From positions 1 to 64,000 of the forward strand of contig RDZG01000069.1 of NCBI GenBank assembly GCA_004293915.1: 64,000 bases of DNA, written 5' to 3'. The stretch comes from Bacteroidota bacterium (GTDB taxonomy: Bacteria > Bacteroidota > Bacteroidia > Cytophagales > UBA9547). How positions within the stretch are numbered: position 1 is the stretch's first letter; each line of letters begins with the position of its first letter. Positions 1 through 4,456 of this stretch are shown in pieces. Below the pieces are notes generated by a model that was given only the letters and a program-made list of their open reading frames with translations, was not told the origin of the DNA and made no database searches. Position numbers and translations under genes: made by a program.

Positions 1-18
1 CAATGTCGTTTAGTTAAG
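1..18. repeat. IS terminal inverted repeat, left
   Basis: Eighteen bases match the reverse complement of 1400-1417 without mismatch. The next bases differ, so 18 bp is the full perfect length visible here. Confidence 0.85.
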
Positions 19-71
19 CAAAGTTAGGAAAAAAGATATAAAAATAATGGATTTTTATATCTATATTGTGA

Positions 72-1398
72 GGGTATTTAGGGGGAGTTCTAAATATTAA
101 CCTAGAGGAAGATTATAGAATAGACATTTTACAACATATTGACAATGAGCTTATTAGCGAAAAGGAACGAGGCAGTTGCAGAAACGACAGCCTTGAAAGG
201 GTATACAGAAATAGAAAATTAACTTTTAAGAATTTATTTTTTATCATCTTGAACTTTAGGGCTACGATTCAAAAAGAGCTAGATACATTTTTCAAACTGG
301 TAGATGGAGATGAATATTCGATACGAAAAGTAACCAAAAGTGCTTTTACACAGGCACGTTCTCATTTAGATTTCTTAATCTTTAAGCGGCTCAATAAAAT
401 AGCCGCTGATGTGTTTTACAAGCGTAATACGTACCACAAGTGGCATAATTTCAGACTACTTGCAGTAGATGGGAGCCGTGTTCAACTGCCTAATCATAAG
501 ACTGTTAAGGAGGAATTTGGGGTTCATCAAATGGGTCCAAAAGCAGATTCAACCCAGTCATTAGCATTGATTTCAATGCTTTATGATGTTTTAAATTTAA
601 TTACATTAGATTAGATTCCTCGATTGGCAAATATACAGATAGCGAAAGAGACCACTTGGTTGAACATTTGGAAAGAACAGAGAAAGGTGATTTGCTGCTA
701 TTAGACAGAGGTTATCCCTGTTTTTGGCTCTTGTTTTTGATGCAAGCCAAAAAGGTGATTGGTGGAATGTAGTCAATACATTCATAAAAGAGCCAGAAAT
801 GGAGAAAATTGTAACACTAAAATTGCCCCAAAAAGATCAAGATAAACTAAATCAATATCCTGATTATAAGGATAAAACAATAGAAGTTCGACTCATCAAA
901 GTGCTGTTATCGACAGGCGAAACTGAAATATTATGCACCTCGCTTTTGGATAAACAACAGTATAAAATAGAGGAATTCAAGGATTTATATGCCAAAAGAT
1001 GGGTAATAGAAGAAGATGGTTATAAAATGCTAAAATGCAGGTGTGAATTAGAAAATTGGTCGGGCAAAACAGCCCTATCTGTGAAACAAGATTTCTATGC
1101 TAAAGTGTTTTCACTTACGCTATTAGCAGCATATAAGCACCCAATTGAAGAAAAAGTAAAAGAAGAATTTAAAAAAGATAAAGACAGAAAATATGATCAA
1201 AAAATAAACAGTACATTTGCATTATCCATACTGAAAGAAGGAATGATAGGCATATTTATCAACAATCAAATGGAAAAAGCGATGAAGTATATGGATGAAA
1301 TCATCTTCAAAACAAGAGAAATCATCAGACCCAAAAGGTCAAATGTGCGAAAGAAAAAGCCTAAACCTATGCCTAGTAGCTCATATAAGCATTATTAA
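72..1398 (+). pseudogene. IS4-family DDE transposase, frameshifted
   Basis: Three stretches in different frames together read as an IS4-type transposase. The first (about 72-614) carries the helical N-terminus and the first catalytic Asp in LLAVDGSRVQLP. A middle piece in another frame (about 614-760) holds the second Asp in LLLLDRGYP. The last (724-1398) has the Y..RW.IEE..YK.LK region with the catalytic Glu. The first break is explained by a 5-bp tandem duplication TTAGA at 606-615. The second, near 745, joins MQAKK directly to GDWWNVV and looks like a short deletion. No in-frame ATG is seen before TTG at 249, so the true start is uncertain. The protein should be non-functional. Confidence 0.85.
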
Positions 1399-1399
1399 C

Positions 1400-1417
1400 C
1401 TTAACTAAACGACATTG
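1400..1417. repeat. IS terminal inverted repeat, right
   Basis: This is the inverted partner of 1-18 and lies just after the transposase stop codon at 1396-1398. Confidence 0.85.
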
Positions 1418-1460
1418 CCTACAAAAACGATACCAAAACAAAACGATACCCATAAAAAAA

Positions 1461-1485
1461 GCCGTTGATTGCTCAACGGCTTTTT
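1461..1485 (+). terminator. Rho-independent terminator in copy A
   Basis: Eight-base stem GCCGTTGA/TCAACGGC with a TTGC loop and a following T-run. No gene now ends just before it; the IS lies there instead. Confidence 0.8.
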
Positions 1486-1494
1486 GTTTTTGTA

Positions 1495-1502
1495 TATATT
1501 TG
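1495..1502 (+). promoter_or_regulatory. TAnnTTTG promoter of the TIR-PIN operon
   Basis: TATATTTG matches the Bacteroidota -7 consensus, and TTTTTG stretches lie about 20 bp upstream. The first ATG (1521) follows 18 bases later. Confidence 0.65.
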
Positions 1503-1520
1503 CAAAAACAAAAAAGTAAA

Positions 1521-2018
1521 ATGAAAACGATTTTCATAACATATAATCCAAAATCAAAACAAGAACAAACACTTGCTATGCGTTTGCATACGATTGGAGC
1601 GGTTAATGATTTTACTATGTTTTTGCCAGATAGAACCGAAAATGAAAATGAAATTAGTGAATCATCAAAATCAAGAATTGCTAGATGTGATTACTTTATT
1701 ATTTTTTCGACCAATCAACTTTCAACCGTTGTAAAACAAGAAATTGAATTAGCGTTTAAGTACTTAAACGACAAATCTAAAATATTGGTAATTTATGACA
1801 AACAAAATGGTAAAAATTTAACTGGAGATATTGTTGAACATTTTACACCTTTTTACTTCGACCAGAGTGAAAACAAACAAGATTTATTGCTTCAAAAAAT
1901 TATTGGAACGATAAAAGAAAAAGAAGTTAAAAGAACGAATAGCAATGCTTTGGCTGCCATTTTAGGCATTGGATTAGGGTTGTTAATTTTAGGTTCACTA
2001 AGTGAAAATAAAAAATGA
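1521..2018 (+). CDS. TIR-like domain protein with C-terminal membrane helix
   Basis: 165 residues from ATG 1521; the upstream TTG at 1500 overlaps the promoter and is unlikely. The N-terminal 100 residues have the TIR strand/helix order: IFITYN as strand A, a helix, FTMFLPDR, a helix ending RIARC, DYFIIFS as the central strand, then STVVKQEIELAF, where E74 or E76 sits where TIR NADases keep their catalytic Glu, and KILVIYD. Residues about 142-160 (ALAAILGIGLGLLILG) form one membrane helix at the very C-terminus. The stop overlaps the next start by four bases (ATGA), so it is translationally coupled to the PIN gene. TIR proteins act as NAD-consuming or signalling enzymes in bacterial defence; the family call is from pattern and the immune role is inferred. 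Confidence 0.68.
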   Translation: MKTIFITYNPKSKQEQTLAMRLHTIGAVNDFTMFLPDRTENENEISESSKSRIARCDYFIIFSTNQLSTVVKQEIELAFKYLNDKSKILVIYDKQNGKNLTGDIVEHFTPFYFDQSENKQDLLLQKIIGTIKEKEVKRTNSNALAAILGIGLGLLILGSLSENKK

Positions 2019-2665
2019 TATTAGAATCGTGTATATTCGATAATACTGTTTTTAATTATTTTTTAAAAATTGAAAGTCTTGATTTTGAAATAATATGTAA
2101 AAATATAATCACAAAAAAAGTACTTGTTCCTTCAAAAATTGTAGCTGAATTAGAGAAATTTAATAGCCCTTTCAATAACAATCAAAACCTAAGAGTAGCT
2201 AAATGGATTTTTGATATTCCATTAAATAATTTTTATCATTTTTGCGATTCTTTTGATATTTTAGTTTTAGAAGAAGTTAAAAAGTGTTTGGATTTAGGAG
2301 AATCAGAGGCAATAGCACAATCCCAGCAAACAGGTGTAATATGGTTTTTTAGTGATGATATAAAAAACAAACCTTTTATTAATAAGAATTTTCCAAACAT
2401 AAAGCAACATAGTTTTATTTTTTTAATTGCTTTATCAGATATTCTTGGGTTGTTACCAAATTATGAAATTATTATAAATGAAGTTTTAGCTATTCGTAAG
2501 TACAACAAACTAAAAGAAACCAAAAAAAAGAAGCTTCAAAAACTTATTTATGAAGAATATGAAAGTGCAATGAAATTAATGGGGGTGGCAAAATCAGAAG
2601 AAATATTACAAAAAAAGTCTCAAATTGATGAAATAAACAAAAAACTAAATCCAGAAATAGCGTAA
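2015..2665 (+). CDS. PIN-domain putative ribonuclease, partner of TIR-like protein
   Basis: 216 residues. An acidic residue early in the chain (ESCIFDNTVFNYF), a central LDLGESEAIAQ with acidic residues, and FFSDDIK near residue 110 match the spacing of PIN-fold metal-dependent nucleases. The last 60 residues are lysine-rich and helical, an extension beyond a normal VapC. It overlaps the stop of the TIR-like gene, and an identical terminator follows two bases after its stop, so the two genes form a closed operon. No small antitoxin gene is present beside it, so an ordinary VapBC pair is unlikely. RNA cleavage as effector is inferred from the fold. Confidence 0.65.
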   Translation: MILESCIFDNTVFNYFLKIESLDFEIICKNIITKKVLVPSKIVAELEKFNSPFNNNQNLRVAKWIFDIPLNNFYHFCDSFDILVLEEVKKCLDLGESEAIAQSQQTGVIWFFSDDIKNKPFINKNFPNIKQHSFIFLIALSDILGLLPNYEIIINEVLAIRKYNKLKETKKKKLQKLIYEEYESAMKLMGVAKSEEILQKKSQIDEINKKLNPEIA

Positions 2666-2673
2666 CAAAAAAA

Positions 2674-2698
2674 GCCGTTGATTGCTCAACGGCTTTTT
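2674..2698 (+). terminator. Terminator of the TIR-PIN operon
   Basis: Same GCCGTTGA/TCAACGGC hairpin and T-run as at 1461, starting nine bases after the PIN stop codon. Confidence 0.85.
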
Positions 2699-2707
2699 GT
2701 TTTTGTA

Positions 2708-2715
2708 TATATTTG
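2708..2715 (+). promoter_or_regulatory. TAnnTTTG promoter of the small membrane-protein operon
   Basis: TATATTTG identical in sequence and context to the promoter at 1495, so both operons probably have equal basal expression. ATG 2743 follows 27 bases later. Confidence 0.65.
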
Positions 2716-2742
2716 CATCACCACAAATTAAACACATACATT

Positions 2743-2820
2743 ATGGATAGCAAATATATAAAATTTATCATACTTGCAATAGAAATTATTTTTGCAGCTA
2801 TTGTAACTAAATTCTTTTAA
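2743..2820 (+). CDS. 25-residue single-helix membrane peptide
   Basis: An ATG at 2743 opens a 25-codon frame ending in TAA at 2820. After a short charged start (MDSKYIK) nearly all residues are hydrophobic (FIILAIEIIFAAIV) and the tail is TKFF, which reads as a single membrane helix. It is the first start codon after the promoter in block B, and the next gene begins three bases after its stop. Size and shape resemble small membrane-acting toxins or regulatory subunits, but no family is recognised. Translation is inferred from position only. Confidence 0.5.
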   Translation: MDSKYIKFIILAIEIIFAAIVTKFF

Positions 2821-2823
2821 AAC

Positions 2824-3087
2824 ATGGTTTATACTGATATTATACTAATGATACTTACACTTGGAATATCATTTTATATTGCACTGCATTATGAATATGA
2901 AATTAAACAAGAAAAAAAATGGGTAGAATTTGAAAAGAAAATTTTTGAAATGCTTGAATCTGAAAAAATAAGAGAAGAGCAAAAAGAAGCCTACAATCAA
3001 ATTTATTTGGATATGAAAAAAAATAGAGAAGAAACCGAAACTTGGATTAAAAACTTATTCAAAATAAATAATTTGAAAATTGACTAA
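2824..3087 (+). CDS. Small membrane-anchored coiled-coil protein
   Basis: 87 residues. Residues 3-21 (YTDIILMILTLGISFYIAL) form an N-terminal membrane helix, followed by a highly charged Lys/Glu-rich helix (about 27-80) with coiled-coil character. It sits three bases downstream of the 25-residue membrane peptide and shares its promoter. Its stop overlaps the convergent recombinase gene by four bases. No family is recognised; the pairing suggests the two small proteins work together at the membrane. Confidence 0.6.
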   Translation: MVYTDIILMILTLGISFYIALHYEYEIKQEKKWVEFEKKIFEMLESEKIREEQKEAYNQIYLDMKKNREETETWIKNLFKINNLKID

Positions 3088-4199
3088 CCCATTTTTTTCA
3101 AAATACCATCTATCTGAATATCAGAATAATGTTTGAGTGTGATGTCTATTTTTTGATGCCCTAGCATATCGGCAATAGTTCGCCTATCGAGACCTTTCGA
3201 TTCCCAAAAGTTGGCAAATGTTTTTCTGCCACTATGTGTAGTGATGTTTTTTGAGATACCTACCATTTCGATAACGTTTTTGAGATAGGTATTGTATTTT
3301 TGAAGCGAAATCAACGGCAGCGAATTGCCATATTTTTGCCATATCGTTTGAGCCTTATCAAAAAGTGGCAATACATAGCGTGAGCCTGTTTTTTCTCGAA
3401 AGCCCTCGATGTAAAGTGTGGTTTGATGCGATTTTATAAACTCAGCCTTAAACTCTTTCATGGTGCTGTAATCCATGCCGGTATAACATTGCCACAAAAA
3501 CAAATCTTTGACACGCTGCAAACTGGGTTGAACCACATTAAAATTTTCTAAATCCGCAAGCTCTGTTAGTGTAAGGTATATTTTGGGTTTGGCTTTTGTA
3601 GGTAAATACTCTACATACAACAGCGGATTGTCTTTTATATGCCCTAATCTATGAGCGTGTTTGATAACCGAACCAAGGGCTTGTATGTTTTTGTTGATAT
3701 AAACCGATGCGTATTTTTGAGTAATTAGATAATCTTTGAACCGCTCAGTAAAAGCCATATCTACATCGTTTATTGCTATTTTCTCATTTTTGAGAAACTT
3801 TAGATATTCCTGCATGTTGTTTTTTCGTGTGATATAGGTTTGAACCGTTCTAAATTCTTTTTCCTGCTTTCTTTTGTGTTCAATAAGTTGTTCGTAAACA
3901 TGAAATAAAAGTACTGGAGGTTTGGCAGAATTGAGATACATATCTTTGAGCGATTCTGGCGAATAATTTTGCTCAGCCAAATCCATACCATTTTTGATTT
4001 CAAATATTTTATTTTTTATTTTTTCGATTTCTCTTTGCAAATAAAATGTAGTAGAAAGCTGCAAATCTTGATTCCATTCTGTGGGGTTGCACTTAATACC
4101 CGTGCTAAAATCCACACATTTTTGTTTTCCAATTGTGAAATAGCAATATATTGTACGTTTTCTAAGCCAAAAATAAATATTAAAATGTTGGTTTTGCAT
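3084..4199 (-). CDS. Tyrosine recombinase / integrase of a genomic island
   Basis: 371 residues with the Bacteroidota integrase layout: N-terminal arm domain, SAM-like core-binding domain (about 90-190) and C-terminal catalytic domain. Catalytic residues seen are THSGR (His and second Arg, about residue 320), LGHQKI (His) and HYSDI (nucleophile Tyr near 358). The position that normally holds the first Arg reads TGMDYSTMKEF, so Arg is replaced by Asp; the Bacteroides integrase IntDOT is known also to lack this Arg. The gene starts 184 bp from the 3' end of tRNA-Pro, the usual arrangement for an element integrated into a tRNA gene. It is probably the enzyme that inserted the 1-4380 island. Confidence 0.9.
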   Translation of the reverse strand: MQNQHFNIYFWLRKRTIYCYFTIGKQKCVDFSTGIKCNPTEWNQDLQLSTTFYLQREIEKIKNKIFEIKNGMDLAEQNYSPESLKDMYLNSAKPPVLLFHVYEQLIEHKRKQEKEFRTVQTYITRKNNMQEYLKFLKNEKIAINDVDMAFTERFKDYLITQKYASVYINKNIQALGSVIKHAHRLGHIKDNPLLYVEYLPTKAKPKIYLTLTELADLENFNVVQPSLQRVKDLFLWQCYTGMDYSTMKEFKAEFIKSHQTTLYIEGFREKTGSRYVLPLFDKAQTIWQKYGNSLPLISLQKYNTYLKNVIEMVGISKNITTHSGRKTFANFWESKGLDRRTIADMLGHQKIDITLKHYSDIQIDGILKKMG

Positions 4200-4352: not shown

Positions 4353-4382
4353 AGGCTTAAAACGCTGATAATCAGTTAATAG

Positions 4383-4456
4383 TCGGGGTGGCAGGATTCG
4401 AACCTACGACCTCTTGGTCCCAAACCAAGCGCGATACCGGGCTACGCTACACCCCG
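4383..4456 (-). tRNA. tRNA-Pro (anticodon UGG)
   Basis: Full cloverleaf on the minus strand: acceptor stem CGGGGTG/CACCCCG, anticodon arm CTTGG-TTTGGGA-CCAAG giving UGG, and a GGTTCGAATCC T-arm. No CCA is encoded; the discriminator is A at 4383. Its 3' end faces the integrase and is the likely attachment site of the island. Confidence 0.95.

What the first reader, a model, noticed from the sequence alone, without database searches (positions are those of the whole stretch)
1521..2665. Two-gene TIR-like/PIN operon, candidate defence system
A short TIR-like protein with a C-terminal membrane helix overlaps (ATGA) a PIN nuclease with a helical extension. No antitoxin gene is present. The operon lies in a tRNA-integrated island beside an IS and an integrase. 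TIR domains act as NAD-consuming or signal-making enzymes in defence; pairing one with a PIN RNase in a closed operon is not a system I know.
Basis: partly seen in the sequence, partly recalled or inferred. Interest (0 to 1): 0.75.

Follow-up and report, generated by a model that had tools for sequence, protein, structure and literature searches.

The report
Membrane TIR protein paired with PIN nuclease
Two overlapping genes make an immune-type TIR protein with a membrane tail and an RNA-cutting PIN enzyme; the pair is inherited as a unit across scattered Bacteroidota, matches no described system that I could find, and looks like a toxin–controller or anti-phage module in which a TIR protein replaces the usual antitoxin.

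Summary
ORF1 (1521-2018) has a TIR fold and a C-terminal hydrophobic helix. ORF2 (2015-2665) is a VapC-like PIN fold with a helical extension. They overlap by ATGA. The TIR and PIN trees agree (r = 0.72; 0 of 20,000 permutations as high). The two exceptions are one Flavobacterium lineage in which the PIN is replaced by a DUF2971 protein. The TIR catalytic Glu (E74) is invariant in 15/15 distinct sequences; PIN acidic residues D9, E96 and D114 are invariant in 13/13, E45 in 12/13. The PINs derive from the DUF3368/PDC-S70 PIN family, whose other members sit behind UPF0175 or XRE-ImmA partners, so the TIR occupies the antitoxin slot. I therefore read it as a membrane-tethered TIR that controls a PIN RNase. 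That control is inferred, and so is defence: most homologous loci lie among housekeeping genes. I found no description of the pair in PADLOC, NCBIfam, PHROGs or the papers searched. Verdict: new variant of a known kind.

The parts
1521..2018 (+). tir gene: 165-aa protein, TIR fold (residues 1-135) + variable helical linker + C-terminal hydrophobic helix (144-160) ending SENKK; catalytic-type Glu E74
2015..2665 (+). pin gene: 216-aa PIN-fold RNase-like protein (acidic site D9, E45, E96, D114) with C-terminal helical extension (about 146-211); ATGA overlap with tir
1456..1485 (+). intrinsic-terminator-like hairpin upstream of the operon (left copy of the 51-nt repeat)
1454..1504 (+). left copy of an exact 51-nt direct repeat (hairpin, T-tract, TATATATTTGCA promoter-like end); likely supplies the operon's promoter
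2667..2717 (+). right copy of the 51-nt direct repeat: terminator of the operon and promoter-like region of the next small genes
3084..4199 (-). tyrosine recombinase (Phage_integrase + SAM-like), next to tRNA-Pro
4382..4456 (-). tRNA-Pro(tgg), possible attachment site (unproven)
1..1417 (.). insertion sequence with 18-bp perfect terminal inverted repeats; DDE-like transposase split over two frames; its end is the contig end

Best explanation
A two-gene toxin/controller module. SHOWN by sequence and model: a membrane-tailed TIR-fold protein with an invariant catalytic-type Glu and a PIN-fold protein with a conserved acidic metal site form one co-inherited, closely packed or overlapping two-gene unit. 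The PIN belongs to a branch of the DUF3368/PDC-S70 PIN family in which the TIR gene stands where relatives carry an antitoxin. INFERRED: the PIN cleaves RNA (tRNA, rRNA or mRNA) and is toxic when free. The TIR protein, anchored in the inner membrane by its C-terminal helix, binds the PIN and keeps it inactive or tethered. A trigger (phage infection, membrane damage, or an NAD-related change processed by the TIR active site) makes the TIR domains reassemble, so that the PIN is released or switched on, stopping translation and aborting infection or arresting growth. Control is most likely by direct contact, because the short PIN versions (172-178 aa) have no room for a separate signal-binding domain.
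For: 14 of 16 TIR loci have the PIN next, same order and strand, gap -8 to +9. TIR and PIN trees are congruent, patristic r = 0.72, 0 of 20,000 permutations as high. PIN-first search: all 3 PIN-positive genomes of 395 also have the TIR. E74 invariant 15/15; PIN D9, E96, D114 13/13 and E45 12/13. Folds: TIR, VapC PIN. Two relatives pass the curated TIR_2 cut-off (31.9 and 34.6 vs 28). All 11 PINs scanned match PDC-S70, whose members in the same phylum have a UPF0175-like gene (23 of 23 resolved loci) or XRE-ImmA immediately upstream. TIR-paired PINs form one clade (93/99). The hydrophobic tail is conserved, including G151 and L154 in 14/15.
Against: No toxicity, binding or phage data exist. Unlike a classical antitoxin, the TIR is more conserved than the PIN (mean 36% vs 27% identity, 66 of 78 pairs) and has no DNA-binding domain. 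In Flavobacterium the same TIR is paired with DUF2971, so it is not PIN-specific. Most relatives are not in defence islands.
Confidence: 0.45

Rival explanations
1. Thoeris-like signalling: the TIR senses infection, makes an ADP-ribose-type signal from NAD, and the PIN is the effector that this signal activates.
For: Best profile match in the PDB is ThsB (9uv0, E 0.0058), aligned over the helix with the conserved Glu; weak ThsB models in Pfam and PADLOC. TIR-plus-exchangeable-partner architecture (PIN or DUF2971) fits a signal maker with swappable effectors. The TIR is the more conserved half.
Against: Thoeris effectors carry a ligand-binding domain (SLOG or macro; PMC12948488); the short PIN partners have none and match only PIN-type models. 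ThsB has no membrane tail (own knowledge).
Confidence: 0.2
2. Two independent toxic effectors in one operon: the TIR depletes NAD (or its tail permeabilises the membrane) and the PIN cuts RNA, both under some outside control.
For: Both active sites are intact. The tail sequence is conserved and glycine-rich, more than a plain anchor needs.
Against: The residue four before the Glu is not the Trp of SARM1-type NADases (motif from own knowledge; sequences). No sensor gene accompanies the pair. Strict pairing and congruent trees suggest mutual dependence.
Confidence: 0.12
3. A plain toxin-antitoxin / stabilisation module of a mobile element with no role against phage, the TIR domain serving only as a structural antitoxin.
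For: Gene order, overlap and PIN ancestry are those of PIN toxin-antitoxin modules. Solitary placement among housekeeping genes in most relatives. Mobile-element setting here.
Against: The catalytic-type Glu is invariant in 15/15, which a purely structural partner would not need; the membrane tail is kept throughout.
Confidence: 0.18

Closest known systems
UPF0175-DUF3368 (COG2886-PIN) predicted type II toxin-antitoxin modules; PADLOC candidate PDC-S70
   Same: Homologous PIN protein as second gene, small partner gene first, overlapping or nearly touching (PMC2701414).
   Different: First gene is a membrane-tailed TIR protein, not a small HTH-type antitoxin; the PINs form a separate clade; in the window's own subgroup the PIN has a helical extension.
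XRE-ImmA/IrrE-PIN modules (COG2856)
   Same: Another controller placed directly upstream of a related PIN; one lies in this same genome (L065).
   Different: Controller is an HTH plus Zn-protease, cytosolic; no TIR.
Thoeris (ThsB TIR + ThsA)
   Same: Two-gene module with a small TIR protein and a second, exchangeable effector gene; ThsB is the best PDB profile match.
   Different: No SIR2-SLOG or membrane-macro effector; the TIR, not the effector, carries the membrane helix; no signal-binding domain found on the PIN.
SPARTA TIR-APAZ, SARM1, TIR-STING
   Same: TIR fold (Z 14-15 for the first two).
   Different: No Ago/APAZ, STING or SAM partner; no such domain in the module.
TPR-GreA/B-C-PIN conflict systems
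   Same: PF20698 PIN matches some members weakly; that system can carry TIR as one of 13 interchangeable effectors (PMC8195603).
   Different: There TPR, GreA/B-C and PIN form one polypeptide; neither TPR nor GreA/B-C is present here.

Membership tests
TIR domain family (Pfam TIR/TIR_2) | TIR fold | tested here: met
   AF2 pLDDT 87; TIR chains rank first, Z 15.3-13 over residues 1-135. DNPH1/deoxyribosyltransferase folds are nearly as close (Z 13.5).
TIR domain family (Pfam TIR/TIR_2) | Significant match to a curated TIR model | tested here: inconclusive
   Not for the window protein itself; met by two relatives, G610 31.9 and G1031 34.6 vs cut-off 28.
TIR domain family (Pfam TIR/TIR_2) | Catalytic Glu in helix C | tested here: met
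   E74 15/15; aligns with the ThsB Glu.
SARM1-type NADase TIR | Trp four residues before the catalytic Glu (WxxxE) | tested here: not met
   No Trp at that position in any of the 15 sequences; ThsB also lacks it.
PIN domain family | PIN fold with conserved acidic tetrad | tested here: met
   VapC Z 10.5; D9, E96, D114 13/13 and E45 12/13.
PADLOC PDC-S70 | Match to the PDC-S70 models | tested here: met
   11 of 11 members, window E 4.6e-5, best 6.1e-26.
UPF0175-DUF3368 toxin-antitoxin | Small HTH-type (UPF0175) antitoxin upstream | tested here: not met
   Upstream gene is the TIR-tail protein in all 14 paired loci.
Type II toxin-antitoxin (functional) | PIN toxic alone, neutralised by partner | not testable with these tools
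   Needs expression experiment.
Thoeris | ThsB-like TIR | tested here: inconclusive
   Best PDB profile hit ThsB E 0.0058; PADLOC ThsB at best E 0.0028.
Thoeris | Effector with SIR2-SLOG, TM-macro or other signal-binding domain | tested here: not met
   Partners match only PIN-type models or DUF2971.
SPARTA | Short pAgo and APAZ | tested here: not met
   No Ago or APAZ domain in the two ORFs or in the two neighbouring ORFs scanned.
Anti-phage defence system | Protection from phage | not testable with these tools
   Context only: beside hsdM in G412/G416, otherwise mostly housekeeping neighbours.

The most novel reading that the evidence does not exclude
A TIR enzyme acting as a membrane-bound, NAD-dependent antitoxin or switch for an RNase: TIR catalysis or assembly at the inner membrane directly gates a PIN ribonuclease, with the nuclease exchangeable for other effectors (DUF2971). 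That would be a new TIR-to-RNase immune circuit and a new class of antitoxin.
Probability: 0.3. Interest if true: 0.8.

Novelty: new variant of a known kind. Interest (0 to 1): 0.6.

Why it matters
TIR domains in bacteria are known as NAD consumers or signal makers whose partners are mostly NADases, membrane proteins or Argonautes (PMC12948488; own knowledge). A conserved pairing with a PIN RNase, in the slot where related PINs carry their antitoxins, would link two large conflict repertoires and make it directly testable whether a TIR protein can gate an RNase. The swap to DUF2971 in one lineage suggests a general membrane-TIR platform with exchangeable effectors. The module is small (1.2 kb) and easy to clone.

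Tried and rejected
Hits G395 (L014), G000:C83 (L015) and G996 (L086) to the TIR query were read and rejected: the first two lie in unrelated long ORFs, the third is an ordinary TIR protein of another kind. Viral contigs gave no relative of either window protein, and phages and plasmids none of the PIN; a distant TIR relative found nothing on plasmids. Two scans with wider alignments could not be run. Plasmid hits to a distant PIN are DUF3368 proteins, three of the six with a UPF0175 gene under the match. A cassette-mobility reading of the 51-nt repeats was tested and not supported: no other TIR-PIN locus checked has flanking repeats over 13 nt, and the hairpin occurs only twice in the genome. 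The tRNA attachment duplicate was sought and not found; three family members gave no comparable tRNA site or empty site. Literature searches for TIR plus PIN pairs, PDC-S70, DUF3368/UPF0175 and DUF2971 found no description of this pair; the relevant 2015 NAR paper on nucleotide-centric systems is not held, so an earlier mention there cannot be excluded. NCBIfam (both protein families) and PHROGs (TIR family) gave nothing usable. Phmmer of either protein against the PDB gave only chance hits.

Full report
OBSERVATION. Terminator-like hairpins stand before (1456-1485) and after (2669-2698) the operon. They are part of an exact 51-nt direct repeat (1454-1504, 2667-2717). To the left is an IS with 18-bp perfect inverted repeats (1-1417) whose left end is the end of the contig. 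To the right are two small ORFs, a tyrosine recombinase (3084-4199, minus) and tRNA-Pro. Integration into the tRNA is plausible, but no second copy of the tRNA end was found.

WHAT THE PROTEINS ARE. By single-sequence HMM scans the window proteins look anonymous: TIR and PIN models do not reach significance in Pfam or NCBIfam, and only PADLOC gives ORF2 a weak PDC-S70 match. Relatives resolve them. The ORF1 model matches SPARTA TIR-APAZ (Z 15.3), SARM1 TIR (13.8) and, nearly as well, DNPH1 (13.5), over residues 1-135. The ORF1 family profile's best PDB hit is the Thoeris protein ThsB (E 0.0058), aligned over the helix that holds the conserved Glu. Two relatives (G610, G1031) exceed the curated TIR_2 cut-off. 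The Glu at position 74 is identical in 15 of 15 sequences; P36, R38, I53 and A78 are too. After the TIR domain comes a helical linker of variable length and a glycine-rich hydrophobic helix near the C-terminus (KD17 2.0-3.2 in all 13 members scanned), in which G151 and L154 are kept in 14 of 15. The ORF2 model matches VapC toxins (Z 10.5, residues 4-134). Its acidic residues D9, E96 and D114 are invariant (13/13) and E45 is kept in 12/13, with Gln in G1031. The extension beyond about residue 146 is present in most of the window's closer relatives and short or absent in the more distant ones.

IS THE PAIR REAL? Yes. Searching for ORF1 in samples of the class (395 genomes), the phylum (395), the family of G203 (249) and the class of G610 (129), and in GTDB genome contigs, gave 16 loci of this TIR family. 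In 14 of them the next gene on the same strand is the PIN, gap -8 to +9 nt. Searching from the PIN side, all three of 395 class genomes with a close PIN also have the TIR. TIR and PIN trees agree (r = 0.72, 0 of 20,000 permutations as high). The two exceptions, G203 and Flavobacterium sasangense, are near-identical copies of one lineage in which the TIR is followed by a DUF2971 protein. On the TIR tree they sit beside the seven-member PIN-paired group, with other PIN-paired rows outside (93/99), so PIN pairing is probably ancestral and was swapped once.

WHERE THE PIN COMES FROM. All 11 PINs scanned match PADLOC's candidate PDC-S70 (window 4.6e-5, best 6.1e-26), which corresponds to DUF3368-type PIN proteins. 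PDC-S70 is a guilt-by-association candidate without reported experimental validation in the passages I read (PMC12988326). In 23 of 23 phylum loci where my script resolved the operon, ordinary PDC-S70 genes follow a small UPF0175-like gene (identity of the small gene judged by eye). UPF0175/COG2886 is a predicted HTH antitoxin of PIN toxins (PMC2701414). Weaker PDC-S70 matches follow XRE/ImmA-type controllers, one of them in this same genome. TIR-paired PINs form their own clade (93/99). So the TIR gene stands in the controller slot of a PIN toxin module.

HOW IT PROBABLY WORKS. The TIR protein is a membrane-tethered controller of a PIN RNase, and loss or change of control releases RNA cleavage. 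This is inference from position, co-inheritance and intact active sites. Direct contact is favoured over a diffusible signal because the short PIN forms (172-178 aa) leave no room for a ligand-binding domain. The invariant Glu speaks against a purely structural TIR, while the absence of Trp four residues before it differs from SARM1-type NADases and resembles ThsB. Against a simple antitoxin reading, the TIR is more conserved than the PIN (36% vs 27% mean identity) and also pairs with DUF2971. Whether the trigger is phage is open: the neighbours of most relatives are housekeeping genes.

NOVELTY. I found no PADLOC, NCBIfam or PHROGs entry and no paper describing the pair. The paper library is incomplete and one relevant paper could not be read. 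Both domains and both general schemes (TIR two-gene systems, PIN toxin modules) are known; the combination and the membrane tail on the TIR are the new variant.

Noticed in passing
window 1454-1504 and 2667-2717: Exact 51-nt direct repeat (terminator hairpin plus promoter-like end) brackets the operon; only two copies in the genome and not seen at other TIR-PIN loci checked, so probably a trace of how the operon was inserted here.
   Followed up: partly
window 1-1417: IS with perfect 18-bp ends whose transposase reading frame is split (ORFs 249-614 and 724-1398 in different frames), either degenerate or frameshifted; its end is the contig end.
   Followed up: partly
window 2743-3087: Small membrane-peptide ORF and an 87-aa coiled-coil-like ORF share the operon's repeat-borne promoter-like region; the 87-aa protein has a weak match to SNaCT7 (E 0.008).
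   Followed up: no
L065 1410-3037 (G000:C112): Second PIN module in the same genome: XRE-type HTH, ImmA/IrrE protease (PF06114, E 1e-13), PIN in one operon.
   Followed up: partly
L011 1495-3021 and L030 7367-8892: Same TIR family followed by a DUF2971 protein instead of PIN, preceded by DUF6943, in two Flavobacterium genomes; in L030 a weak Mrr-like gene follows.
   Followed up: partly
window 2243-2245 (ORF2 residue C77): A cysteine outside the usual PIN acidic site is identical in all 13 TIR-paired PINs; its role is unknown.
   Followed up: no
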